Shown piece after piece: positions 41,753 to 55,425 of a stretch of 64,000 bases of DNA; positions within the stretch are counted from its first letter, which is position 1, and the number at the start of each line of letters is the position of its first letter. The stretch comes from Maribacter sp. ACAM166 (GTDB lineage: Bacteria > Bacteroidota > Bacteroidia > Flavobacteriales > Flavobacteriaceae): assembly GCF_005771495.1 (NCBI RefSeq), contig NZ_VAUW01000001.1, positions 124,001 to 188,000 on the forward strand. Direction: 5' to 3'. A program made the position numbers and the translations under genes. The notes beneath the pieces were generated by a model that was not told where the DNA came from, made no database searches, and saw only the letters and a program-made list of their open reading frames with translations.

Positions 41753-43030
41753 CTAAACCTTAGACATCTTTTTTCTAATTTCATTTAAACACAAATTCCC
41801 CAAACTGCCCTCATGGGAGTGATGTATATCTCTTTTTGGCGTAAACGTTCCCTCATTGATTTCTATACCCATTTTCTTATAAGCATCTCTAAATGGCATC
41901 CCGTTTTGTACAAGTTCATTCAACGTGTCTACACTGAATAGGTAATCATATTTTGGGTCTTCTAGAATTTCTTTATTTACACGTATTTCTTTTAGGCTAA
42001 ACGTCAAAATTTCCAAACAGGCTTTCATGTCTTGTATGGCGGGAATGATGATTTCTTTGACCAATTGTAAATCTCTGTGGTAACCACTTGGTAAATTGTT
42101 GATGACCAAGGTCAACTGGTTGGGAATAGATTGTAGTTTATTGCATTTACCGCGAACCAATTCAAATACATCGGGGTTTTTCTTGTGCGGCATAATACTT
42201 GAACCGGTTGTCAACTCATCTGGGAAAGAAATGAAATTGAAATTTTGGCTCATGTATAAACAAATGTCCATAGCCATTTTAGATAGGGTTGCTGCAATGT
42301 TGGCCATCCCGAATGCAGTCGCTTTTTCTACCTTGCCTCGGCTCATTTGTGCAGCTACTACATTATATTTTAGAGTTTCAAAGCCCAGTTCATTTGTGGT
42401 GAAACTACGGTCAATACCAAAAGAACTTCCATAACCGGCAGCACTTCCCATAGGGTTTTGGTTGGCTACTTTGTAGGCAGCCTCAACAAAATAAAGATCA
42501 TCGATTAAACTTTCTGCATAGGCTGAAAACCATAAGCCAAAAGAAGAGGGCATTGCAATCTGAAGGTGGGTATACCCAGGTAACATTACCTTTTTATGCT
42601 CTTCGGCCTTTTCTAAAAGAAGGTCGAAAAGTGATTTAGTCATTGATTTTATTTCAGTCAGCTCATCCTTTAAATACAAATGCATAGCCACCAAAACTTG
42701 ATCGTTTCGAGAACGTGCGGTATGAATTTTTTTACCGGTATCCCCTAGGCTTAAGGTGAGCATGTATTCTATTTTAGAATGCATATCTTCAAAAGAAGGT
42801 TCAATTGTGAATGTACCTTTTTTGATTCTTGCTTCAATAATGTCTAGTTCATCAACAAGTTCTTTGGTTTCTTTCGGGGAAATTAGACCTATTTTCCCTA
42901 GCATTTTTGCGTGTGCCTTTGATGCGATAACATCATATTTTGCTAAGTGCAAATCCAATTCCCTATCATTTCCTACTGTAAAATGATCGATTTTTTTATC
43001 CGTGCTAAATCCTTTATCCCAAAGTTTCAT
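41753..43030 (-). CDS. argH: Argininosuccinate lyase
   Basis: The protein has 425 residues. Fumarase/ASL-family signatures are HTARSRNDQV, GYTHLQIAMP and the mobile catalytic loop GSSIMPHKKNP. The enzyme splits argininosuccinate to arginine and fumarate, the last step of arginine synthesis. It is the last gene of the arginine/proline operon, 58 bp after argE. It is somewhat shorter than the usual 450-460 residues, but no motif is missing. Confidence 0.95.
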   Translation of the reverse strand: MKLWDKGFSTDKKIDHFTVGNDRELDLHLAKYDVIASKAHAKMLGKIGLISPKETKELVDELDIIEARIKKGTFTIEPSFEDMHSKIEYMLTLSLGDTGKKIHTARSRNDQVLVAMHLYLKDELTEIKSMTKSLFDLLLEKAEEHKKVMLPGYTHLQIAMPSSFGLWFSAYAESLIDDLYFVEAAYKVANQNPMGSAAGYGSSFGIDRSFTTNELGFETLKYNVVAAQMSRGKVEKATAFGMANIAATLSKMAMDICLYMSQNFNFISFPDELTTGSSIMPHKKNPDVFELVRGKCNKLQSIPNQLTLVINNLPSGYHRDLQLVKEIIIPAIQDMKACLEILTFSLKEIRVNKEILEDPKYDYLFSVDTLNELVQNGMPFRDAYKKMGIEINEGTFTPKRDIHHSHEGSLGNLCLNEIRKKMSKV

Positions 43031-43088
43031 AATCTTTAAATTAGTAATTAAAACTTATTATTTTTCATTTTAATTAGTAGCCGCACGC

Positions 43089-44153
43089 TTAGTGCAAAAA
43101 TCCTTTTAGTATTTTAATATACAAATCTATGCCTTCTTCAACTTCATCTACATAAATAAATTCATTTGCAGAATGCGAACGTGTACTATCACCAGGACCT
43201 AATTTTAAAGACTGGCAACTTAATGCCGCTTGATCAGAGAGGGTAGGGGAACCGTAGGTTGCTCTACCTAAAACAATACCCGATTTCACCAGCGGATGCT
43301 CTTTATTAATATTGGAGGAATTAAGTCGTAATGATCTTTCCTTTAATTCGCATGGGGCATCTTTTTTCAACAAATCGGCAATTTCTTTATTTGAATAAAC
43401 ATCATTAACCCTAACATCCACAACTAAATCTACATGAGCAGGAACTACGTTATGTTGCGTGCCAGCACTAATTTGAGTGACGGTCATTTTCACATCACCC
43501 AAAGATTCCGATGTTTTGTTGAATTTGTAGTTTTTAAACCAATTTAATACTTCAATTGCATTATAAATGGGATTGTCGGTATTTGGGTGTGCTGCATGAG
43601 ACGGTGTACCTTTAATTACAGCATCGAAAACCACTAAACCTTTTTCAGCAATAGCGAGTTGCATCAATGTAGGTTCGCCAACAATTGCAACATCGATAGT
43701 AGGAAGTTTTGGGAGTAATCCGCGCAAACTATTTTCTCCAGCATTTTCCTCTTCCGCTGAAGCGACCATCAAAATATTATGGGTTAGGTTTTCGCCATCG
43801 TAATAATGAACAAAAGTGGCTAAAAGTGATACCAATGGTCCACCAGCATCATTACTCCCTAAGCCAAATAATTTACCTTCCTCAATATGAGGATGAAAAG
43901 GGTCTTTGGTGTATGCAGTATTAGGTTTTACCGTATCGTGATGAGAATTCAAGAGTAAGGTCGGTTTGCTATCATCCCAACATTTATTCTTGGCAATTAT
44001 ATTGTTGCCATCACGTTCTGTTGGAATGTTATATTGTGCTAACCAAGCTTGAATGGCATCTGCAGTTTTGTCCTCTTCTTTTGAAAAGGATTCTATTGAA
44101 ATTAATTCTTGTAATAATTTTAAAGCACTCTCTGTAAGTTCTATTTGATTCAT
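43089..44153 (-). CDS. argE: M20-family acyl-ornithine deacylase
   Basis: The protein has 354 residues. The M20 metal-site motifs are NSHHDTV (His71, Asp73), GSNDAGG (Asp102) and ASAEEEN (Glu134-Glu136). In this operon it should remove the acyl group from N-acyl-ornithine or N-acyl-citrulline. With an argF'-type transcarbamylase the natural substrate is the acyl-citrulline, and whether the acyl is acetyl or succinyl is open. The start is one base after the argB stop. Confidence 0.9.
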   Translation of the reverse strand: MNQIELTESALKLLQELISIESFSKEEDKTADAIQAWLAQYNIPTERDGNNIIAKNKCWDDSKPTLLLNSHHDTVKPNTAYTKDPFHPHIEEGKLFGLGSNDAGGPLVSLLATFVHYYDGENLTHNILMVASAEEENAGENSLRGLLPKLPTIDVAIVGEPTLMQLAIAEKGLVVFDAVIKGTPSHAAHPNTDNPIYNAIEVLNWFKNYKFNKTSESLGDVKMTVTQISAGTQHNVVPAHVDLVVDVRVNDVYSNKEIADLLKKDAPCELKERSLRLNSSNINKEHPLVKSGIVLGRATYGSPTLSDQAALSCQSLKLGPGDSTRSHSANEFIYVDEVEEGIDLYIKILKGFLH

Positions 44154-44154
44154 T

Positions 44155-44934
44155 CTAAAGTGTTAACGTAGTGAACAATTCTGTGTTTTCATCTAACATG
44201 GTGACATCTCCTAAGCATACTTTTTTGACATCGTTTTCTAAAGCATGAAAGCAATTATGTAGCTTGGGTAACATTCCATCAGCTATGACACCTGCAGATA
44301 AAAGTTCATTATATTTTGTAGTATTTATTTGTTTGACAACAGAATTATCATCTTTAATATCCAATAAGACCCCTTTTTTTTCAAAGCAATAATATAAGGT
44401 AGTACCGTAATGGGATGCCATTGCTATAGAAATTTCTGACGCAATCGTATCAGCATTCGTATTCAACAATTGACCGTTGCCATCATGTGAAATTGCACAG
44501 AAAATAGGCGTTATCTTTAAGCTTAAAAGGTTTGTCAGTAATTCGGAATTTACTCCGTCAATATCGCCCACAAATCCGTAATCAATTTCTTTTACAGGTC
44601 GTTTGTGAGCTTGAATACTATTACCATCTGCACCACTCAAGCCAAATGCATTTATTCCTTTAGCCTGAAGTTGGGCAACAATCTTTTTGTTTGCCAAACC
44701 ACCGTAGACCATTGTGATAATATCTACAGTTTCTTTATCCGTAATACGTCTACCATCTATCACATTAGAGGGTATGCCCAAACGCGTAGCTAATTGAGTT
44801 GCTAATTTTCCACCACCATGTACAAGAATTTTTGGCCCATCTAATCTTGAAAAAGCAGATAGGAAGACATCTAATGCATTTTCATCTTCTATAACATTCC
44901 CGCCAATTTTTACTATGGATAATTTTTGTTTCAT
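44155..44934 (-). CDS. argB: N-acyl-glutamate kinase
   Basis: The protein has 259 residues. The amino-acid kinase fold is evident from IVKIGGNVI, VHGGGKLATQLATRLG, GLSGADGNSI and the closing nucleotide part NTNADTIASEIS. The enzyme phosphorylates N-acyl-glutamate in arginine synthesis. It sits one base after the SDR gene and one base before argE, so these three are co-translated or coupled. Acetyl versus succinyl preference cannot be seen. Confidence 0.93.
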   Translation of the reverse strand: MKQKLSIVKIGGNVIEDENALDVFLSAFSRLDGPKILVHGGGKLATQLATRLGIPSNVIDGRRITDKETVDIITMVYGGLANKKIVAQLQAKGINAFGLSGADGNSIQAHKRPVKEIDYGFVGDIDGVNSELLTNLLSLKITPIFCAISHDGNGQLLNTNADTIASEISIAMASHYGTTLYYCFEKKGVLLDIKDDNSVVKQINTTKYNELLSAGVIADGMLPKLHNCFHALENDVKKVCLGDVTMLDENTELFTTLTL

Positions 44935-44935
44935 A

Positions 44936-45691
44936 TTACGTATTTAAAATTCCTCCATCAATGGTCATTGCCGAACCCGTTATCCACGAGGCATCTTCAG
45001 AAACCAGAAATAGAGCAAGATTAGCAATATCATTAGATTCGCCCAATCGTTTTAATAATGTTTGGTTAGCTGCATTCTCAACAGCTTTTTCAGGGTCATT
45101 AAAAGCTTGTGCAGAGTTCCGAAGCAATGGGGTGTCTACTGGCCCCGGACACATAGCATTCACCCTAATTTGTGGCGCATACTCAACAGCCATTTGCCGC
45201 ATTAACGCAAGCGAACCTGCTTTTGAGGCGCAATACGCCGGATGATTTGGAAAACTTTTATAAGCAGCTATAGAAGCATTTATTAGAATAGTAGACCTTT
45301 TGTTTTTTTGTAATTCTGGGATAGCATATTTAGAAAGGTAAAAAATCGAGGATAAATTGGTGTCTATCGTATTTTTCCATAGCTCATCTGGGAGGTCGGT
45401 GACACTTCCTATCCCCAAAATACCAGCGTTCATTGAAAGAATATCCAATTTTCCAAAATGTTTAATTGCAGCAGTTACGAGTTGTTCATTATAGGATGGG
45501 TGCCTAATATCACCACCAAGAAAAACTGCTTGCTTGCCCAACTCATCGGATAATGCATTACCCCGAATTTCATCTCTACCAGAGAGTATCACTTTTGCGC
45601 CATGAGCTACAAAAGTTATGGCTATAGCTTTTCCCATGCCACTGGTTGCCCCAGTAATTATGGCTACTTTATTTTCGAGTTTCTTAATCAT
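44936..45691 (-). CDS. Short-chain dehydrogenase/reductase inside the arginine operon
   Basis: The protein has 251 residues. Classical SDR motifs are TGATSGMG (13-20), NAG (88-90), Ser140 and the YCASK pair (Tyr153, Lys157), with the Rossmann fold for NAD(P). It sits between argF' and argB with gaps of 4 bp and 1 bp. No SDR step is known in arginine synthesis, since the reductase step is done by ArgC. A misplaced housekeeping or detoxifying enzyme, or an accessory step, are both possible. Confidence 0.88.
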   Translation of the reverse strand: MIKKLENKVAIITGATSGMGKAIAITFVAHGAKVILSGRDEIRGNALSDELGKQAVFLGGDIRHPSYNEQLVTAAIKHFGKLDILSMNAGILGIGSVTDLPDELWKNTIDTNLSSIFYLSKYAIPELQKNKRSTILINASIAAYKSFPNHPAYCASKAGSLALMRQMAVEYAPQIRVNAMCPGPVDTPLLRNSAQAFNDPEKAVENAANQTLLKRLGESNDIANLALFLVSEDASWITGSAMTIDGGILNT

Positions 45692-45695
45692 TTTT

Positions 45696-46637
45696 TTATT
45701 TTAAACCTTCCAGTATTTTTTTCAATACCAATTGTGCGGCATACGTTCTGTTGTTTGCTTGCTCAATGACTAATGATTGTTTGCTATCCAAAACTTCGTC
45801 TGCCACGACCACATTTCTGCGTACGGGAAGACAGTGCATGAATTTGGCGTTGCCCAATTTTTTCAAGGTTATCTGCCAGTCTTTTTCTTGCGGAATAACT
45901 TGCCCGTAATTCGTATAGCTACTCCAATTTTTCACATACACAAAATCAGCATTTTCTAGGGCTTTTTCTTGGTCGTTTTCAATTCTTGAATTTTTAGTAA
46001 TGTTAGTATCCAGCTCATATCCTTTTGGATGGGTAATAACGAATTCAGCATTTTGTTTCTGCATCATCTGTATAAACGAATTGGCAACGGCATGTGGCAA
46101 TGCCTTAGAATGAGGTGCCCATGATAAAACGACTTTCGGATGATTTGTAAAGGTTTGCTCCTCTAGGGTAATGGCATCGGTTAGGGCTTGTAACGGATGG
46201 CCTACAGAACTTTCCATATTTATGATAGGTACACTTGCATATTTTTTGAAACCATTCAACACTTCTTCCGCTTCGTCCTTTTCTTTATCCACCAATCCTG
46301 CAAAAGCACGTATGGCAATAATATCACAGTATTGGGAAATAACCTGGGCCGCTTCTCTAATATGTTCAGAGGTGCCTTGGTTCATTATTGAACCATCAGT
46401 ATATTCAAGCGCCCAACCTTCACTTCCAAAGTTCATAACGATTACTTCCATACCCAAATTCATAGCTGCTTTTTGAGTGCTGAGACGGGTACGAAGGGAG
46501 TTGTTGAAAAATAACAAACCAATGGTTTTATCACTGCCTAAGTCTTTAAATTCTTTAGGATTGTTTTTGAGTGCAATACCTTCCTTGACCCAAGAGGATA
46601 AGGAATCGATATCATTTATGGAGAGGTAATTTTTCAT
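45696..46637 (-). CDS. argF': N-acyl-ornithine carbamoyltransferase (argF' type)
   Basis: The protein has 313 residues. The carbamoyl-phosphate site is seen as FFNNSLRTRLSTQKA (SLRT at 47-50), and HCLPVRRN near the C-terminus is the acyl-ornithine-type signature. It matches the Bacteroides fragilis succinylornithine transcarbamylase pattern rather than ordinary ArgF. The residue that separates succinyl from acetyl use (Pro90 in the B. fragilis enzyme, Glu in the Xanthomonas acetyl enzyme, from memory) is Ser90 here, before EHIREAAQ, so the acyl group is unsettled. It overlaps the end of proB by 4 bp. Confidence 0.92.
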   Translation of the reverse strand: MKNYLSINDIDSLSSWVKEGIALKNNPKEFKDLGSDKTIGLLFFNNSLRTRLSTQKAAMNLGMEVIVMNFGSEGWALEYTDGSIMNQGTSEHIREAAQVISQYCDIIAIRAFAGLVDKEKDEAEEVLNGFKKYASVPIINMESSVGHPLQALTDAITLEEQTFTNHPKVVLSWAPHSKALPHAVANSFIQMMQKQNAEFVITHPKGYELDTNITKNSRIENDQEKALENADFVYVKNWSSYTNYGQVIPQEKDWQITLKKLGNAKFMHCLPVRRNVVVADEVLDSKQSLVIEQANNRTYAAQLVLKKILEGLK

Positions 46638-47398
46638 GCTTTAATTTTTGTGAATATACTTTTATTTTCAATTGCGTCGATAATGAAATTATCGCGTAGA
46701 CCATTCGTAATCCATGTTTCAATACCTGCTTCTTTGGCAAGGGTTGCGGCATCAATCTTAGATTGCATCCCACCGGTACCGTGAGTGGATTTTAAATTAC
46801 CTATTTCTTGATTCATTTCATTTAAATCTGAAACGGTTTGAATAGTTTTTGGGGAGGTGCTTGTTAAAGATGCCTTGGTGTAAATACCATCTGTATTCGT
46901 TGCGATAATCAAAATGTCCGCACATAATAGTGCTGCGGTTAAACCAGCCAATTTATCATTGTCGCCAAACTTAATTTCATCGGTAGCTACTGTATCATTT
47001 TCATTGATGATAGGGATAAAATTATTAGCAACCAATACGTTTATGGTGTTTTTGATATTCACTTTAGACTGTTCTCTTTCAAAATCGGAATACGAAAGAA
47101 GACATTGTGAGGTAAATAGACCTAATTCACGAAAGTTTTCTTGAAAAATACGCATGAGGTGTGGCTGACCAATTGATGCAAGGGCTTGCTTTACATCTAT
47201 TTCCTCACCATTGTGCTCTAATTTCACGAATTGTTTAGCTGCAGCTATTGCGCCAGAACTAACAATGATAAATTCGTACTCGTTCTTTAAAGTGGCTATT
47301 TGCCTGCCTATATCCTCTATTTTACCTCTGGATATATGGTCGGTATCCTTGGTTAACGTATTGGTTCCAATTTTTAATAAAATTCTTTTTTTTACCAT
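46634..47398 (-). CDS. proB: Glutamate 5-kinase, short form without PUA domain
   Basis: The protein has 254 residues. The amino-acid kinase domain shows ILLKIGTNTL, VSSGAIAAAK, NENDTVATDEIKFGDNDKLAG and GTGGMQSKIDAA. The C-terminal PUA domain of longer ProB proteins is absent. This is a known natural variant, so no truncation is claimed. It makes glutamyl-5-phosphate, the first proline step. It overlaps argF' by 4 bp. A 199-bp gap with a heptamer tandem repeat separates it from proA. Confidence 0.93.
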   Translation of the reverse strand: MVKKRILLKIGTNTLTKDTDHISRGKIEDIGRQIATLKNEYEFIIVSSGAIAAAKQFVKLEHNGEEIDVKQALASIGQPHLMRIFQENFRELGLFTSQCLLSYSDFEREQSKVNIKNTINVLVANNFIPIINENDTVATDEIKFGDNDKLAGLTAALLCADILIIATNTDGIYTKASLTSTSPKTIQTVSDLNEMNQEIGNLKSTHGTGGMQSKIDAATLAKEAGIETWITNGLRDNFIIDAIENKSIFTKIKA

Positions 47399-47500
47399 CT
47401 TCTAATTGGCTTTTTATCTTTAGCTAATTGATTTAGGCTAAAAATATTCTGCTATTTTCTAGGTGCCGTCTCCGGGTTATCAGAATAGATATATTACTTT

Positions 47501-47563
47501 CCATCAACCATCAACCATCAACCATCAACCATCAACCATCAACCATCAACCATCAACCATCAA
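47501..47563. repeat. 9 x 7-bp perfect tandem repeat (CCATCAA)n
   Basis: The unit CCATCAA is repeated nine times without error in the 199-bp gap between proA and proB. The length is 63 bp. It is non-coding in this layout and looks like a slippage-prone VNTR. It is not a CRISPR, as the units are contiguous and have no spacers. Confidence 0.95.
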
Positions 47564-47597
47564 CCCTTTTACTAAGCAATGCAGAAGTGATTAACGA

Positions 47598-48794
47598 CTA
47601 CCTTACCTGTCCATTGCCTTTTACATACCATTTATTGGTTACTAAATGTTGCAAGCCAATGGGGCCGCGTTGGTGTAATTTATCTGTACTAATTGCAAGT
47701 TCTCCACCTAAGCCAAATTGGCCGCCATCGGTAAAACGAGTCGATGCATTATGATATACCGCAGCCGTATCAACAGATTGCATAAAAGTATCTGCCTCCT
47801 CTTCATTTGCAGTAATGATTACTGCCGAATGCCCACCGCAATATGTGTTAATATGTTGAATGGCTTCATCTAAATCGGGTACTTGGCCAATAACTATTTT
47901 ATAATCTAAAAACTCCTCATGCCAAACAGAGTCATCGTCGATTTGAGAAGTGCCTTCTAGTCCGGCTAATTTTGCATCGGTTAAAATTTTGAAGTTGTGT
48001 TTTTTTAAGGACTGCAATAATTGGTTTAAAAATTCCATTTTACGAGGCAAATCCCTTGAAATAATGACCTTGTCCACAGCATTACAAGCCGATATTTTGG
48101 TCGTTTTTGAGTTTAAAATTATATCTAAGGCCATTTGTAAATCTGCCTCTTGGGAAACATACACAAAATTATTACCACGTCCACTAACGATTACTGGGCA
48201 CTGCGCGTGTTGCTTTACAAATGCAATCAAACGCTCACCTCCTCTAGGTATAATTAAATCAAGTTTTTGGGTCGGCTTTTCTAAAAATTGCTGAGTTTCT
48301 TCCCGAGAATAATTTAGATAGGTGATCCATTCTTTAGAACAGTCACATGCTTCTAAAGCCATATGCCAAAGATTCACCAAAACTAAATTAGAGTGTAAAG
48401 ATTCTTTGCCGCCTTTCAGTAAAATACTATTACCTGATTTAAAAGCGATACCCGAAGCCTCAATGGTGGCATCAGGTCTTGATTCATAAATAATCATCAC
48501 TGTACCAAAAGGTGCAGTTTTATTGCTTATTTCAAGCCCGTTGTCATGTGTGAATTGAAAGCGTTCAACATGTAAAGGGTCGTCAAGAGCAGCCAATTTT
48601 TTTAAGGAATAGACTATTTCGCCTATCTTTTTTTTATCGACTTTCAAACGGTCTATCATTGCTATGTCTTCAGATTCAAATGAATTCAAATCTTTGTCAT
48701 TGGCAGAGAGTACTATAGACTCTTCTTGTCGTACGAGTTCTGCCATTCGAAGCAGCACCGCATTTCTTTTATCTAAGCTGAGTGTTTTATTCAT
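47598..48794 (-). CDS. proA: Glutamate-5-semialdehyde dehydrogenase
   Basis: The protein has 398 residues. Gamma-glutamyl-phosphate reductase features are NKTAPFGTVMIIYESRPDATIEA, GNSILLKGGKES, and the catalytic Cys in TKISACNAVDKV. The enzyme reduces glutamyl-5-phosphate with NADPH to glutamate semialdehyde. Its start overlaps the argD stop by one base, so it is coupled to the arginine genes. It sits upstream of proB, which reverses the usual proB-proA order. Confidence 0.95.
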   Translation of the reverse strand: MNKTLSLDKRNAVLLRMAELVRQEESIVLSANDKDLNSFESEDIAMIDRLKVDKKKIGEIVYSLKKLAALDDPLHVERFQFTHDNGLEISNKTAPFGTVMIIYESRPDATIEASGIAFKSGNSILLKGGKESLHSNLVLVNLWHMALEACDCSKEWITYLNYSREETQQFLEKPTQKLDLIIPRGGERLIAFVKQHAQCPVIVSGRGNNFVYVSQEADLQMALDIILNSKTTKISACNAVDKVIISRDLPRKMEFLNQLLQSLKKHNFKILTDAKLAGLEGTSQIDDDSVWHEEFLDYKIVIGQVPDLDEAIQHINTYCGGHSAVIITANEEEADTFMQSVDTAAVYHNASTRFTDGGQFGLGGELAISTDKLHQRGPIGLQHLVTNKWYVKGNGQVR

Positions 48795-49918
48795 TATAAA
48801 GCAGTCTTAAGAGCCTTAAAAAATTCATCTAAATCTTGTTGTGTAATATTCAAAGCTGGTAAAATTCGTAATACGGTTTTATCTTTGGCTCCGCCTGTGA
48901 ATAGGTGATGCTCATAAATTAATTTTTTACGTAGTTCAGCTACTTCAAAATCAAATTCAAGCCCTAACATTAGGCCTCTACCTTTTACACGTTTTACTTG
49001 CGGAATCTCTTTTGCCTTTTTATTGAAGTAGGTACCCAATAGTTCAGCATTGGCCACCAAATTTTCTTCTTCAAGCACTTCAAGCACAGCCAAAGTAGCT
49101 GTGCACGCTAAATGATTACCCCCGAAAGTTGTTCCTAACATACCGTATTTGGCTTTTATGCTTTCATGAATTAAAACGCCACCTACCGGAAAGCCATTAC
49201 CCATTCCTTTTGCGATACTTATTATATCTGGTTTGATATTGTGATGCTGAAATCCAAAAAACTTACCACTTCTTCCAAAGCCGGACTGAACTTCATCCGC
49301 AATTAACAAAACACCATTCTCTTTACAAAGAGATGCTACCTGTTGATAAAACTCGGTACTTGGTTCATCTAAACCACCGACCCCTTGTATTGACTCAATA
49401 ATTACAGCGCATATATTTTTTTTGACAATTTCATTTTCAAATGTCTTTATTTCATTAAGTTCTAGAAAAATAACTTTTTGCTGTTGATTGATTGGGGCAT
49501 TTATAGATGGATTATCAGTTGCGGCAACTGCCGCAGAAGTACGCCCGTGAAACCCATTTTTAAAGGCAATCACCTTAGACTTTCCTGTAACAAACGAAGC
49601 TATTTTTAGTGCGTTCTCATTGGCTTCTGCACCAGAATTACACATGAATAAGTTATAGTCATCACAACCGGATTGTCTGCCAAGCTTTTCGGCCAGTTCC
49701 TCTTGTAGAGGATTTTGAACAGCATTACTATAAAAACCTATCTTATCAAGCTGCTCTTTTAGTCGTTGTACATAATGAGGATGAGAATGCCCAATAGAAA
49801 TAACGGCATGCCCACCATAGAAATCTAAATAATCTTGTCCTTTATCATCAGTCACTACTATTCCTTTTGCAGAGACCGGAGTTACATTGTATAATGGGTA
49901 AACGTCGAATAATTCCAT
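48794..49918 (-). CDS. argD: N-acyl-ornithine aminotransferase
   Basis: The protein has 374 residues. It is a class III PLP aminotransferase with CNSGAEANENALKIA (93-107), FHGRTSAA (123-130), ADEVQSGFGRSG, and the PLP Lys237 in SIAKGMGNGFPVGG. Operon context gives the acyl-glutamate-semialdehyde to acyl-ornithine step. Ornithine aminotransferase activity is possible in principle. It overlaps proA by one base. Confidence 0.93.
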   Translation of the reverse strand: MELFDVYPLYNVTPVSAKGIVVTDDKGQDYLDFYGGHAVISIGHSHPHYVQRLKEQLDKIGFYSNAVQNPLQEELAEKLGRQSGCDDYNLFMCNSGAEANENALKIASFVTGKSKVIAFKNGFHGRTSAAVAATDNPSINAPINQQQKVIFLELNEIKTFENEIVKKNICAVIIESIQGVGGLDEPSTEFYQQVASLCKENGVLLIADEVQSGFGRSGKFFGFQHHNIKPDIISIAKGMGNGFPVGGVLIHESIKAKYGMLGTTFGGNHLACTATLAVLEVLEEENLVANAELLGTYFNKKAKEIPQVKRVKGRGLMLGLEFDFEVAELRKKLIYEHHLFTGGAKDKTVLRILPALNITQQDLDEFFKALKTAL

Positions 49919-49992
49919 ATATCAAAAATTATAATTCCAAAATCTCATTCAAGCACACGCTTTTAAAATTGAATAGCGGTTGCTTTTAATCG

Positions 49993-50793
49993 TTATTGGT
50001 GTTTAAATTCAGTAATCTTATTATAGGATGCAACGATACCGCAAATCAATGATGAACTCAGCCCTTGGTGCTCCATTTCGTTCAAACCAGTAATCGTACA
50101 GCCCATTGGTGTAGTTACCCTATCAATTTCTTCTTCCGGATGGTTGCCCGATTCTATAAGCAAACTGGCGGCACCATTGCAGGTGTACATAGCCAATTCT
50201 TGTGCTTCTTTTGCATCGAAACCTAATTGTATGGCACCTTGGGTCGTAGCACGTATCAAACGCATCCAGAAAGCGACGCCACTGGCACAAATAACGGTTG
50301 CAGCCTGCATTTGACTTTCAGGGATTTCCATTGAAAATCCCATTCGGTTGAAAATAGCCTTGGCCAAATCAATTCGCTTTTTACCTTTTTCATTGCTACA
50401 AATACAGGTCATGGATTTCCCTACGGAAATTGCTGTATTGGGCATACTTCGGATGATATAATGTTCTTTTCCTATAACCCTTTCGATTTTATCGATACTA
50501 AAACCAGTAATGGTGGAAATTAGCACATGATTGTCATTGAACAAATCTTTTATGCTTTCTAGAATTTCAGCAAAATGAACGGGTTGAACGGCAAATATCA
50601 AAATATCTGAATTTTTCACAGCCTCTCGGTTATCTTCCGTTACGGTCACATTGCCATATTCTTGAAATTCGGCAATAGATTTTGCGTCTCTTTTAGTAAG
50701 GTACATACTAGTTGCCCCGTTACTATTAAGAATCCCCTTGGCTATTGAAAGGCCTAAGTTGCCGGCACCTATGATGGCTATTTTCATACTCAT
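49993..50793 (-). CDS. proC: Pyrroline-5-carboxylate reductase
   Basis: The protein has 266 residues. It has an N-terminal Rossmann motif IIGAGNLG (8-14), AVQPVHF, and a C-terminal VTTPMGCTITGLNEMEHQGL. The enzyme finishes proline synthesis with NAD(P)H. ATGs at 50793 and 50787 are both possible. It lies between argC and argD, so proline and arginine synthesis share this transcript. Confidence 0.93.
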   Translation of the reverse strand: MSMKIAIIGAGNLGLSIAKGILNSNGATSMYLTKRDAKSIAEFQEYGNVTVTEDNREAVKNSDILIFAVQPVHFAEILESIKDLFNDNHVLISTITGFSIDKIERVIGKEHYIIRSMPNTAISVGKSMTCICSNEKGKKRIDLAKAIFNRMGFSMEIPESQMQAATVICASGVAFWMRLIRATTQGAIQLGFDAKEAQELAMYTCNGAASLLIESGNHPEEEIDRVTTPMGCTITGLNEMEHQGLSSSLICGIVASYNKITEFKHQ

Positions 50794-50905
50794 TATTTTA
50801 AAGTACCAGGTAAAAGTAATTAATACTAGTTTTTTATTTAATTTAAAATTTTCTAAAAATGCGCTGTACTACTTCCTAAATACTTTGTCGTACCAGTATT
50901 ATATT

Positions 50906-51880
50906 TTAAAATACTCCTGCCTTCAGGTTCAGCCCTAAATCTTCTTCAAGTCCGAATATTAAATTCATGTTTTGTACTGCCTGACCTGATGCACCTTTTA
51001 ATAAGTTGTCAATGGCTGAAGTAACCAGTAAAATATCATCATGCTTGTGTAAATGCACATGACATTGATTGGTATTTACCACTTGCTTTAAGTGTATAGG
51101 TTCCTCTGTCATCTGGGTGAAAATGGCATTGGTATAGAAATCTTGATAGATTTTTTCTGCCTCGGCTAAATTTCCCTCAAATTTGGTGTAGGATGTAGCT
51201 AATATTCCACGGGTGAAATTTCCCCTATTAGGCATGAAAAATAAATCACCTGTAGTATTCTGTAAGGCATGTAGACTTTCATTGATTTCGCCCAAATGCT
51301 GATGGGTAAATGGCTTGTACCAGCTTACATTATTATTTCGCCATGAAAAATGTGAGGTTGCCGACGGACTAACGCCTGCGCCTGTGCTTCCTGTTACCGC
51401 ATTGATATGGACATCATGTTCCAATAGATTTGCTTTTGCCAATGGCAGCAATGCCAATTGAATTGCCGTAGCAAAACAACCTGGGTTAGCAATATATTGG
51501 GCATTCTCGATTTGTATTTTGTTCAGTTCTGGGAGCCCATATACAAACTGTTTTCCGTTAAAATCAGCATCTGCATGCAATCTAAAATCATTACTTAAAT
51601 CGATAATCTTGGTATCCGTAGAAAAAGCATGCTCCTTTATAAAAGTGGTTGAATTACCATGCCCTAAACATAGAAATACGACATCAACTTTAAGGTTTAC
51701 ATTTCCTGTAAATTCTAGGTCCGAAATTCCTAATAAATCAGGGTGGGCCGTAGTTACTTTTTTACCTGCTCTGGTGGTGCTGTATACAAAATCGATTTCT
51801 GTTGCCGGATGGTTTAAAAGTATGCGAATAAGTTCGCCTCCCGTATAACCCGAACCACCAATAATTCCTGCCTTAATCAT
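50906..51880 (-). CDS. argC: N-acyl-gamma-glutamyl-phosphate reductase
   Basis: The protein has 324 residues. The NADP-binding start is IIGGSGYTGGELIRIL and the catalytic Cys135 is in ANPGCFATA. GSTGAGVSPSATSHFSWRNNN follows as in the family. The enzyme reduces acyl-glutamyl-phosphate to the semialdehyde. It is the third gene of the operon, 86 bp after argG and 112 bp before proC. Confidence 0.95.
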   Translation of the reverse strand: MIKAGIIGGSGYTGGELIRILLNHPATEIDFVYSTTRAGKKVTTAHPDLLGISDLEFTGNVNLKVDVVFLCLGHGNSTTFIKEHAFSTDTKIIDLSNDFRLHADADFNGKQFVYGLPELNKIQIENAQYIANPGCFATAIQLALLPLAKANLLEHDVHINAVTGSTGAGVSPSATSHFSWRNNNVSWYKPFTHQHLGEINESLHALQNTTGDLFFMPNRGNFTRGILATSYTKFEGNLAEAEKIYQDFYTNAIFTQMTEEPIHLKQVVNTNQCHVHLHKHDDILLVTSAIDNLLKGASGQAVQNMNLIFGLEEDLGLNLKAGVF

Positions 51881-53215: not shown

Positions 53216-53845
53216 CTATTTATTTTTCTTTTCTTTTTTTGTTAAAAACAAACTTTCCTTTATGCTTTTTAATCTAGCAAAAGCCTTTCCGTTCATTTCT
53301 TTTACTTCGCTTACTTTTTCCTTACTGTTAGGCTCATAGAGCATACCAGTGCATAAGCACATTTTTTGCTCTGTACGTGTTAGAATATCAAAGTTCTTAC
53401 ACGTTTGGCAACCTTTCCAAAATTCGGGATCATCGGTCAATTCAGAGAAGGTTACTGGTTTGTAGCCTAACTCATAATTGATTTTCATAACCGGGAGCCC
53501 TGTGGTAATACCAAAAATTTTAGCATCGGGAAATTTTTTTCTACTGAGTTCGAATACCTTTCCTTTTATTTTCTTGGCTAGACCTTGTCCTCTGTAATCA
53601 GGATGGACAATTAGTCCAGAATTTGCGACAAATTTCTCATGGCCCCAAACTTCAATATAGCAGAAGCCAGCGAATTTATCACCGTCTAGAGCTAATACAG
53701 CATTGCCATTAGAAAGTTTTTTCTGAATATATTCTGGTGTACGTCTTGCAATACCAGTGCCTCGAATTTTTGCCGATTCTGCAATCGTATCACAAATATC
53801 TTGGGCGTATTTAAAATGTGATTGGTTAGCAACAATTAAGTTCAT
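53216..53845 (-). CDS. GNAT-family acyltransferase, probable first enzyme of arginine synthesis
   Basis: The protein has 209 residues from ATG 53845 (TTG 53851 also in frame). The GNAT acyl-CoA loop is HPDYRGQGLAKKI (RGQGLA at 85-90). CQTC (Cys146, Cys149) followed by CLC (Cys163, Cys165) near the C-terminus may be a small zinc site, which is not usual in GNATs. The operon has argB, argC and argD but no argA or argJ, so this enzyme is the best candidate for making N-acyl-glutamate. Acetyl or succinyl CoA as donor is not decided. It is the first structural gene after the candidate Arg leader peptide. Confidence 0.8.
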   Translation of the reverse strand: MNLIVANQSHFKYAQDICDTIAESAKIRGTGIARRTPEYIQKKLSNGNAVLALDGDKFAGFCYIEVWGHEKFVANSGLIVHPDYRGQGLAKKIKGKVFELSRKKFPDAKIFGITTGLPVMKINYELGYKPVTFSELTDDPEFWKGCQTCKNFDILTRTEQKMCLCTGMLYEPNSKEKVSEVKEMNGKAFARLKSIKESLFLTKKEKKNK

Positions 53846-53930
53846 TGCCAATTGGATTTAAAGTGTAAAAAATAATTTTAATTTTTTGTGCGGAAATGGA
53901 CTCACCTAATTCCATAAATATAGTTCACCC

Positions 53931-53984
53931 TTACGGGCGGCGACGGCGAGATGTGAACGGGCGCGCTAGAGCAACAGTGCTCAT
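53931..53984 (-). CDS. Candidate arginine leader peptide of the arg/pro operon (17 aa)
   Basis: On the minus strand an ATG at 53984 opens an 18-codon ORF ending in TAA at 53931 that encodes MSTVALARPFTSRRRRP. It holds five Arg codons, four of them consecutive (CGC CGT CGC CGC), and CGC is rare in this AT-rich DNA. The ORF lies 85 bp upstream of the GNAT start. It is GC-rich amid AT-rich flanks. A 5-bp hairpin (53969-53982) lies in codons 1-6. A 6-bp stem GTTCAC/GTGAAC (53953-53958 with 53923-53928) encloses the Arg run. This layout is that of a ribosome-stalling leader controlling arginine genes. Function is inference. No strong terminator hairpin with a U-run follows. Confidence 0.75.
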   Translation of the reverse strand: MSTVALARPFTSRRRRP

Positions 53985-54081
53985 GGTGGTATACAAAAAG
54001 TAGATTTTCTCGTTCATTGTGGGGTAAATGTACAAATAATAATTAACGGACATCAACGATGCCTAAATTTTTACAAAAACG

Positions 54082-55425
54082 TCACTTTTTGTTATTATGT
54101 GTAATAATTTCATAAATTAAAAAGGCATATACAGAACAATATTCAATTGCAAGAAGCCACAAGTTTTCCTTAAATTCTGCTTGAGAATAAGCGAAATAAC
54201 TAAGAACGATAGCAGCAGACCACACTAATGCATAGCGATAGGATGTGAAAATAGCGAGTAATACTAAAAAAACACTATACCACGGGTGTACTGTGGTAGA
54301 CATGAAGTAGTAAATAGCGAGTACCCACATCATAGAAGATAGTACGGTATTTAAATCTTGTTTTTTTCGCAAAAAAGCAAATAGGGCTACTATGATAATG
54401 GTCACTATTGGCGTGATTTGGCCATATGTTTTTATTAGTTCCCACGGTTTGGCATTGAATTGAACCGCCGTTCGTTTTACAACATTGTACAAACTTGAAT
54501 TAAACTCAAAATTTGAAAACCACAGACTTAAGGTTTCCGTGTAATTATGAATAAACTCTGGCGTATAAAAGGGTACAAATAGAAGTAGGGAAGTTGCACC
54601 GATTATTAGATAGAATAGGACACTTTTCTTCCATCCTAAATAGTTAAAAAACAGAGGTAAGAACAATAAGGGTACTAATTTTATTGATATCGAACATGCT
54701 AAAACTACCGCAGCCAAATGCCATTTTTTTATGGATAATAAATACATGGATAAGATGAAGAAGAATAGCATCACCCCTTCGAAATGAAGATTTCCGGTGA
54801 GCTCTACGATTACCAAGGGATTCAAAAAATACCAAAATATCAACTGTGGAGATTTGTTGAGGTTCTTTAACAGCTTTCTTCCAAAATAGAAAATACCTAT
54901 ATCTGCCAAAATAATCGTTCCCCGCATTACGATTAACGAACCAAGAATGCTTTTTCCTCCAAAAAGAGCGGCCAAGCTAAAAATAAGCTGATTTAAGGGT
55001 GGGTAGTTACTATAGTGTCTGGCGCTTAAACTTCCCATACCTTTGTAAAGTTCTTGGGCATTAGGAATCACAATATCCGTATTGGTTATCAATTCGTTTG
55101 GAAAATGTAGATAGGGATTAATTGCATTGGCGACCAAATGGCCATCCCATATAAACCGATAAAAGTCTTGAGAAAGGTTGGGTTCCGCTAATAAAAAAAT
55201 AAGTCTAAAAGCAATACCTACTACCAATAAAAATCTGAAGTTCCATTTTTCAAACTGTATCAATTTGTAATAGAGTAAAAAAAGGGCAGCGAAAAGCGTA
55301 AGTAATTTTATAAAGTCCGTTCGTTCAAGATGATACCCAAACGTATAGTAAAACACCAAACTCAATACCGCCAACAACAATGAAACCTTATGTAGTTTCA
55401 GAAATGTACTCAGGGTATTGGACAT
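54082..55425 (-). CDS. Polytopic glycosyltransferase, mannosyltransferase/GT87-like
   Basis: The protein has 447 residues with about ten to twelve hydrophobic helices. The N-terminal extracytoplasmic loop SQDFYRFIWDGHLVANAINPY (split motif, acidic pair early in the loop) is typical of GT-C enzymes that use polyprenyl-phosphate sugars. These enzymes act in the inner membrane on envelope glycans or lipids. The sugar is not predictable. It is a single gene, upstream of and co-oriented with the arginine operon, and separated from it by the leader region. Confidence 0.8.
   Translation of the reverse strand: MSNTLSTFLKLHKVSLLLAVLSLVFYYTFGYHLERTDFIKLLTLFAALFLLYYKLIQFEKWNFRFLLVVGIAFRLIFLLAEPNLSQDFYRFIWDGHLVANAINPYLHFPNELITNTDIVIPNAQELYKGMGSLSARHYSNYPPLNQLIFSLAALFGGKSILGSLIVMRGTIILADIGIFYFGRKLLKNLNKSPQLIFWYFLNPLVIVELTGNLHFEGVMLFFFILSMYLLSIKKWHLAAVVLACSISIKLVPLLFLPLFFNYLGWKKSVLFYLIIGATSLLLFVPFYTPEFIHNYTETLSLWFSNFEFNSSLYNVVKRTAVQFNAKPWELIKTYGQITPIVTIIIVALFAFLRKKQDLNTVLSSMMWVLAIYYFMSTTVHPWYSVFLVLLAIFTSYRYALVWSAAIVLSYFAYSQAEFKENLWLLAIEYCSVYAFLIYEIITHNNKK

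What the first reader, a model, noticed from the sequence alone, without database searches (positions are those of the whole stretch)
53923..53984. Arg-rich leader peptide upstream of the whole arginine/proline operon: candidate arginine attenuator in a Bacteroidetes
Seen: a minus-strand ORF, ATG 53984 to TAA 53931, encodes MSTVALARPFTSRRRRP. Four Arg codons in a row (CGC CGT CGC CGC) and one more upstream are C/G-ending codons in DNA that is otherwise AT-rich. It ends 85 bp before the first gene of the GNAT-argG-argC-proC-argD-proA-proB-argF'-SDR-argB-argE-argH operon. The Arg run lies inside the loop of a GTTCAC/GTGAAC stem, and a small hairpin covers codons 1-6. Known: runs of the regulated amino acid in a short ORF ahead of its biosynthetic operon are the hallmark of ribosome-mediated attenuation. 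Inference: ribosome stalling at Arg codons when charged Arg-tRNA is scarce opens the downstream RNA. I do not know of a described arginine leader of this form in this phylum. No clear U-run terminator hairpin was found, so the readout could be translational or Rho-linked.
Basis: partly seen in the sequence, partly recalled or inferred. Interest (0 to 1): 0.88.

Follow-up and report, generated by a model that had tools for sequence, protein, structure and literature searches.

The report
Arginine-sensing leader RNA in Flavobacteriaceae
A short arginine-rich reading frame and two folded RNA hairpins sit in front of the arginine operon in much of a large bacterial family, and very probably turn the operon up when arginine runs short, by a read-out that does not look like the textbook one.

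Summary
The leader ORF starts at ATG 54017, not 53984 (28 codons, ending RRRRP), 7 nt behind a TAnnTTTG-like promoter box. Two hairpins follow: P2 (53939-53926; last Arg codon in its 5' arm, stop codon in its loop) and P3 (53913-53892; loop UGNGU). A covariance model finds the unit in 181 of 299 sampled Flavobacteriaceae genomes: 181 of 209 with ArgG, 0 of 90 without. P2 and P3 covary. Leader Arg codons outside P2 are 92% CGU/CGC, against 27% in the adjoining GNAT genes. None of the 299 has an ArgR_C match. Ribosome-mediated attenuation by Arg-tRNA supply is strongly supported on the sensing side, by sequence alone. The read-out is open: U-tracts behind P2 or P3 are not above chance in the family, and folding shows no conserved antiterminator. 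No Rfam match. I file it as a new variant of leader-peptide attenuation, with P3 as a conserved output hairpin of unknown partner. No expression data were available.

The parts
54025..54032 (-). promoter -7 type box TACATTTA (Bacteroidetes TAnnTTTG type, last base A), 7 nt before the leader ATG
   Evidence: sequence; TAnnTTT[AG] followed at 4-9 nt by ATG in 59 of 126 non-redundant leaders against a shuffled mean of 3.3, maximum 6. The start of transcription itself is inferred, not mapped.
53931..54017 (-). leader ORF, 28 codons, MNEKIYFLYTTMSTVALARPFTSRRRRP, nearly leaderless by inference
   Evidence: ATG invariant in 34 of 34 rows; in that alignment all 81 gap runs inside the ORF are 3 nt long, the 23 after it 1 nt; in 126 non-redundant leaders the frame is open for 20 codons or more upstream of P2 in 117, against 41 and 50 in the other frames
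53969..53982 (-). P1 hairpin GAGCA-CTGT-TGCTC inside the ORF
   Evidence: moderate: 86% of cells paired in the genus rows; over the whole structure 12 cells changed on both sides (0 of 500 shuffles reach that) but only 2 pairs with such a change (428 of 500 reach that); fold z over 126 leaders -0.98 on average, below -1 in 42%
53937..53948 (-). Arg control codons CGC CGT CGC CGC
   Evidence: codon before the P2 codon is Arg in 113 of 126; Arg codons outside the P2 codon are CGU or CGC in 462 of 502 against 319 of 1200 in 151 GNAT genes
53926..53939 (-). P2 hairpin CGCCC-GTAA-GGGTG; 5' arm is the last Arg codon plus Pro letters, stop codon in the loop
   Evidence: compensated variants CGCAC/GTGCG, CGCGC/GCGCG, CGCCC/GGGCG; invariant within the 34 genus rows, which say nothing for or against it
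53892..53913 (-). P3 hairpin GGAATT-A-GG-TGAGT-CC-ATTTCC (one T-T mismatch in the window's stem)
   Evidence: 101 unique P3 sequences: 5.85 of 6 outer pairs formed against 4.61 with partners shuffled (maximum 4.83 in 1000); loop GGTGNGTCC in 96 of 101. Within the genus rows the fifth pair is unpaired in 27 of 34.
53216..53845 (-). first gene, GNAT acetyltransferase
   Evidence: Pfam PF00583 and PF13508
51967..53145 (-). argG
   Evidence: TIGR00032 above cut-off
41753..51880 (-). rest of the operon: argC, proC, argD-type, proA, proB, argF'-type, SDR, argB, M20 peptidase (argE-like), lyase (argH-like)

Best explanation
It is a leader-peptide attenuator of the arginine/proline operon. Inferred: transcription starts a few bases before ATG 54017, so a ribosome loads on the nascent RNA almost at its 5' end. 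Shown by conservation: the ORF carries on average four Arg codons in its last 11 codons up to P2, nearly all CGU or CGC, the last of them forming the 5' arm of hairpin P2 (that last codon is Arg by construction of the count). Inferred: with ample charged tRNA-Arg for CGU/CGC, the ribosome runs to the stop in or just after P2 and leaves, P2 and P3 fold, and operon expression is held down; when that tRNA is uncharged, the ribosome stalls on the Arg codons, P2 cannot form, and expression goes up. The step from P2/P3 to the operon is not known. Taken over the family, neither hairpin has the U-tract of an intrinsic terminator, so premature termination by another route (Rho or a paused polymerase), or control of mRNA decay or of translation of the GNAT cistron mostly 45-60 nt downstream, with P3's conserved UGNGU loop as the contact point, are all open; I hold a transcriptional read-out slightly more likely.
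For: Family-wide conservation: R1 in 146 of 299 and R2 in 181 of 299 genomes. Association with the pathway: 181 of 209 ArgG genomes, 0 of 90 without. Position: of the 99 family loci aligned, 97 have GNAT within 120 nt and 99 have ArgG downstream; 80 of 80 named loci carry the P2-P3 pair upstream of GNAT (at least 23 of them share an identical 110-nt leader with a locus already counted). Codon specialisation 92% against 27% CGU/CGC. Frame: mean Arg in 11 codons 3.96 against 0.54 and 0.34 in the other frames. Synonymous change CGT to AGA in L021 and L025. Covariation of P3 and P2. ArgR_C in 0 of 299 family genomes while the control search finds it in 8 of 14 named genomes, Bacteroides among them. 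The same genome has a his leader with a textbook terminator and a thr leader with a P2-like hairpin, so the mechanism class seems to be in use there.
Against: No expression or ribosome data. No conserved antiterminator: the best mean pairing probability between the P2 block and the P3 block is 0.041 (pseudoknots not covered). U-tracts: 8 of 126 after P3; 51 of 126 after P2, below the 65.6 expected from shuffled linkers; yet the window's own P2 and that of L160 pass a loose terminator scan, so a weak terminator at P2 is not excluded. The window's leader does not fold better than shuffles (z 0.60, 147 of 200 shuffles fold at least as well). Arg runs are broken in some rows (His L003, Pro L009, Ser L024 and L028) and some leaders keep only two Arg codons in their last nine (for instance MCHIFPRRP). 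28 of 209 ArgG genomes have no R2 match. ArgR is also missing from most of the class (found in 11 of 247), so its absence is not special to this family.
Confidence: 0.82

Rival explanations
1. Arrest peptide: the nascent ...RRP chain stalls at its own stop codon in answer to free arginine, as TnaC does with tryptophan; codon supply is not what is sensed.
For: Pro in 117 of 126 and a stop right after it in 102 of 126; RRP is the commonest tail, 123 of 149.
Against: No residue reaches a majority at codons -12 to -3 before P2; in P2 variants the stop lies further on; Pro and the last Arg are already constrained by P2 pairing; Arg codon choice is specialised, which an arrest peptide does not need.
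Confidence: 0.07
2. Pure RNA element: P2 and P3 are bound by a protein, the ribosome or a small molecule, and the ORF is incidental or only a passive translation gauge.
For: P3's loop is among the most conserved letters; P2 and P3 covary.
Against: Frame, start, codon choice and 3-nt gaps of the ORF are under selection too.
Confidence: 0.06
3. The conserved block is a DNA operator for a transcription factor.
For: A strongly conserved core GGTGNGTCC and no ArgR to take the role.
Against: The arms change in compensatory pairs while the sequence is free to vary, as in RNA; the core lies more than 100 nt downstream of the promoter box.
Confidence: 0.03
4. The ORF encodes a small protein with a function of its own.
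For: ORF conserved across the family.
Against: Outside the Arg end its residues vary and its length varies (19 to 37 aa among the 111 leaders with a box); it is tied to argG.
Confidence: 0.02

Closest known systems
his and trp operon attenuators of the classical ribosome-mediated type (features recalled)
   Same: Leader ORF with a run of codons of the regulated amino acid ahead of its operon, with hairpins behind it. The window's own genome has a his leader that looks of this type, MKNRTTHHHFYTDAQAR with a terminator AAACCCGTTTGA-GCAA-TCAAACGGGTTTTG.
   Different: Here no U-tract terminator above chance in the family and no conserved antiterminator; the last control codon forms the 5' arm of P2; a hairpin with a conserved loop (P3) follows.
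Polycysteine leaderless short ORFs of mycobacteria (Canestrari et al. 2020; only the reference entry seen) and the candidate cys leaders without terminators in PMC1262725 (passages seen)
   Same: Runs of the regulated amino acid's codons near the stop of a short ORF (leaderless by the title of the former), no clear terminator in the latter.
   Different: Arginine instead of cysteine, another phylum, and covarying hairpins; [quoted passage not shown]
carA leader peptide of Pseudomonas aeruginosa (mentioned in PMC4997734, passages seen)
   Same: A leader peptide at an operon controlled by arginine.
   Different: The paper ties possible attenuation there to pyrimidines and arginine control to the transcriptional level; its codons are not in the passages I saw.
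Structured 5' elements of Flavobacterium psychrophilum (PMC9723704, section 19 read, other passages seen)
   Same: Clues for leader-peptide attenuation upstream of amino-acid operons in the same family; pheA and hisG are named among the conserved 5' elements.
   Different: Section 19 names no arginine gene and 'arginine' occurs once in the main text, on cyanophycin; supplements could not be read.

Membership tests
Ribosome-mediated transcription attenuator (trp/his type) | short ORF with control codons of the regulated amino acid upstream of its operon | tested here: met
Ribosome-mediated transcription attenuator (trp/his type) | intrinsic terminator (stem plus U-tract) before the first gene | tested here: not met
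   family: P3 8 of 126, P2 51 of 126 against 65.6 expected; the window's P2 does pass a loose scan
Ribosome-mediated transcription attenuator (trp/his type) | antiterminator exclusive with the terminator | tested here: not met
   no conserved pairing between the P2 and P3 blocks above 0.041 mean probability; pseudoknots not covered by that method
Ribosome-mediated transcription attenuator (trp/his type) | expression rises when the amino acid is short, depending on leader translation | not testable with these tools
   needs a bench test
Leaderless amino-acid-codon sORF attenuator (mycobacterial polycysteine type) | leaderless or nearly leaderless sORF rich in the regulated codon | tested here: inconclusive
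   box to ATG 7 nt in the window, spacing enriched in the family; 43 of 154 leaders had no box by my pattern; start of transcription not mapped
ArgR regulon | ArgR protein present | tested here: not met
   PF02863 in 0 of 299 family genomes
Known Rfam family (riboswitch, T-box, other leader) | match to a covariance model | tested here: not met
   none at gathering over the window, none at E up to 10 over 53780-54120
Arrest peptide (TnaC type) | conserved residues at fixed distance before the stall site (defining feature recalled) | tested here: not met
   codons -12 to -3 before P2 have no majority residue

The most novel reading that the evidence does not exclude
P3 is a new kind of output module: a hairpin, mostly with a short bulge, and a conserved UGNGU loop, coupled to P2, that stands in for the intrinsic terminator and passes the ribosome's position on Arg codons to polymerase, Rho, an RNase or a protein, in a family that controls arginine synthesis without ArgR.
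Probability: 0.35. Interest if true: 0.8.

Novelty: new variant of a known kind. Interest (0 to 1): 0.64.

Why it matters
It offers an answer to how Flavobacteriaceae control arginine synthesis without ArgR, and it is a natural experiment: 157 leaders in hand with covarying hairpins, codon specialisation and natural variants. [quoted passage not shown] a leader ORF placed 7 nt behind the promoter box makes it testable. P3, without a U-tract above chance and with a conserved loop, may show an attenuation read-out that I found described nowhere in the searches listed in the full report.

Tried and rejected
A second small ORF at ATG 53915 (MELGESISAQ...): rejected, because its ATG is lost in some relatives (ATA in L015, TTG in L024 and L026) while the RNA letters stay. 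Intrinsic terminator at P2 or P3 as a family feature: not above chance, though the scan hits P2 in the window and in L160 and nothing in L037 and L044. Classical antiterminator: none conserved. Pairing of the Arg codons (CGCC) with GGUG of P3: possible by eye, mean probability about 0.03, and not kept in the L165 loop variant; an idea only. GNRA tetraloop (GUAA) docking on P3: recalled idea, weakened by GUAG, UUAA and CUAG loops. Known Rfam element: none. Another copy of the 19-base P3 core in the own genome: none with up to 3 mismatches. P1 as a universal hairpin: only moderately supported.

Rows dropped and biases: 3 of 160 leaders had no P3 loop by my pattern (L158, L159, L160); leaders over 85% identical upstream of P2 were removed to reach 126; the codon counts drop only identical copies of the stretch compared, so relatives count more than once. 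In some searches the P2 position is found by pattern, so the codon at position 0 is Arg by construction; the 502 codons leave it out. In one search the automatic P2 finder picked a wrong hairpin in a few rows (for example L080, L123, L144). The shuffled P3 control keeps the bulge chosen for the true partner, which favours the observed value somewhat. Of 146 R1 hits in the family I fetched 110 as loci (30, 80) and gave 99 loci. The output was cut; I recounted its gene order. GNAT was not found by tblastn in 2 of the 99 (L075, L106) nor in L159 and L160. The search kept the best 80 of 535 relatives.

Full report
What is there. The window lies in a Flavobacteriaceae genome (G000, 4.92 Mb) close to Maribacter (best named relatives; records of the window's own genome may be left out there). 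On the minus strand, 85 bp before the GNAT gene, lies the reported ORF with CGC CGT CGC CGC. Protein families confirm an arginine/proline operon; the argD-type and carbamoyltransferase-type genes miss the cut-off of their best family, and GNAT has Pfam matches only.

Correction of the ORF. I searched GNAT in 60 relatives (match in 44). could read 37 upstream regions (seven more fetched loci were not read by that script, L037 and L039-L044). 36 of the 37 contain CGCCCGTAAGGG; the exception, L038, is from another family. The 36 are 35 same-genus genomes and one of another genus and gave 34 distinct sequences. In all 34 the ATG at 54017 is invariant; the codon aligned to 53984 is ATG in 4. In that alignment all 81 gap runs within the ORF are 3 nt, the 23 after the stop 1 nt. 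Departures in the Arg run exist: His in L003, Pro in L009, Ser in L024 and L028, while L021 and L025 keep Arg by a CGT to AGA change.

Distribution. A covariance model from those 34 (R1) finds one match per genome in 146 of 299 genomes of the family, drawn evenly from a larger group. A model rebuilt from 99 matches (R2) finds 181 of 299. ArgG at E up to 1e-30 is found in 209 of 299. Cross-table: both 181, ArgG only 28, leader only 0, neither 90. Of the 28, I fetched six: L158, L159, L160 and L162 match R2 weakly (E 0.00034, 0.29, 0.0033, 0.00074), L163 ends at the contig edge, and L161 keeps a GTGTCCAAAG stretch and a P1-like repeat but no Arg codons, P2 or P3 that I can see. In a class-wide sample R2 finds 3 of 247, all in this family; 7 family genomes are listed in that sample. 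ArgR_C is in 0 of 299 family genomes and in 11 of 247 of the class, so absence of ArgR is not special to the family. All 80 named loci have the P2-P3 pair upstream of GNAT; these are the 80 closest of 535 relatives, not a random sample, and at least 23 repeat a leader already counted. Gene order: of 99 family loci, GNAT within 120 nt in 97 and ArgG downstream in 99.

Outside the family. Of eight order-level upstream regions, L037, L038, L039 and L044 have Arg-rich short ORFs (for example MNKTTKHINTLAPRFFRRPLWVLN), L040 and L041 weaker ones, L042 and L043 none; R2 matches none of the eight at E up to 1. Arg leaders may thus be older than this RNA form.

Sensor half. In 126 non-redundant leaders the codon before the P2 codon is Arg in 113, the one before that in 68, and Arg averages 3.96 per 11 codons (P2 codon included) against 0.54 and 0.34 in the other frames. 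Outside the P2 codon, 462 of 502 Arg codons are CGU or CGC, against 319 of 1200 in 151 GNAT genes of the same loci and 33 of 101 in the window's operon. CGU, CGC and CGA are read by tRNA-Arg(ICG) in most bacteria (start of the abstract of PMC3711424, seen in the listing). A caveat: a demand for C-rich RNA in that stretch would also raise CGC. A TAnnTTTG box followed at 4-9 nt by ATG occurs in 40 of 126, shuffled mean 1.1; with A or G as last base 59 against 3.3. That the transcript starts 3-5 nt before the ATG is inferred from the usual place of this box, as I recall it.

RNA half. P3: 101 distinct sequences, 5.85 of 6 outer pairs formed, 4.61 when partners are shuffled; loop GGTGAGTCC 67, GGTGTGTCC 22, GGTGCGTCC 7, five others, of which three replace an inner G-C by A-U and one has GU/AC. 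P2: CGCCC-GUAA-GGGU(G) dominates; compensated variants include CGCAC/GUGCG, CGCGC/GCGCG and CGCCC/GGGCG. In such variants the stop can lie beyond the hairpin (L139; L172, L171, L157, L175), so the stop inside the loop is common but not needed. P1: moderate evidence. From P2 to the inner G of P3 the distance is 18-23 nt in 151 of 157 rows; from P3 to GNAT it is 45-59 nt in 136 of 151. In L159 and L160 P3 is replaced by another hairpin with U-rich letters behind it. Within the genus P2 never varies and P3 varies little, so the case for both rests on the family.

Read-out. P3 is followed by at least 5 T in 8 in 8 of 126; P2 in 51 of 126, less than the 65.6 expected from shuffled linkers. Against this, the loose scan counts P2 of the window and of L160 as terminator-like (2 sites found in all against 0.3, and 5 against 0.8, in shuffles). 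Partition-function folding shows P2 (mean probability 0.69) and P3 (0.58) and no conserved exclusive partner. The linker ends in a T-G step before P3 (T 0.70, G 0.75 at -8 and -7), about 11-15 nt behind P2, the spacing of a hairpin-type polymerase pause as I recall it; this is an idea only. Downstream of P3 the RNA is poor in G, which would fit Rho loading or simply an open 5' UTR.

Context in the same genome. The his leader has HHH codons and a textbook terminator. The thr leader of the genus, read in 29 loci, has ACCC...GGGG, a C-run/G-run hairpin that takes in a Thr codon, in 29 of 29; in the window's genome the stop follows it directly. So attenuation by leader peptides seems in general use here and the P2 idea is shared. 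The one further operon looked at, ilvD, showed no obvious leader.

What is known. Ten searches in the held library (listings) showed me no description of an arginine leader in Bacteroidetes; most subscription papers are not held and supplements were not open. PMC9723704 reports clues for leader-peptide attenuation in F. psychrophilum and names pheA and hisG (section 19). PMC7366714 mentions short ORFs like leader peptides in Bacteroides (passages). PMC1262725 reports cys leaders without terminators in Actinobacteria (passages). PMC2965389 has no occurrence of the terms Bacteroid, Flavobacter, arginine, arg operon or Gramella in its main text.

Verdict. Sensing by Arg codons: strongly supported by sequence, untested at the bench. 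Membership in the classical terminator/antiterminator type: two defining features tested and not met. It works like an attenuator; its output is new or at least not described in what I could search.

Noticed in passing
L178 (own genome C14, upstream of hisG): His leader MKNRTTHHHFYTDAQAR, 7 nt behind a TACTTTTA box, followed by an intrinsic terminator AAACCCGTTTGA-GCAA-TCAAACGGGTTTTG.
   Followed up: partly
L180, L184-L212 (upstream of thrA in the genus): Thr-codon leader with a C-run/G-run hairpin over a Thr codon at or near the stop in 29 of 29 loci, much like P2 of the arginine leader, then a conserved CTCCGT-like stretch and a GTGT/ACAC repeat in most.
   Followed up: partly
L037, L038, L039, L044 (other families of the order): Arg-rich leader ORFs upstream of the same GNAT gene with different 3' structures; RRP recurs in three of the four.
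   Followed up: partly
L161: An ArgG genome whose leader keeps its 5' part but seems to have lost the Arg codons, P2 and P3: a natural deletion.
   Followed up: no
L159, L160: P3 replaced by another hairpin followed by U-rich letters, possibly an intrinsic terminator.
   Followed up: no
P3 to GNAT start, family-wide: Strong G depletion in the stretch between P3 and the GNAT start codon, A-rich then T-rich.
   Followed up: no
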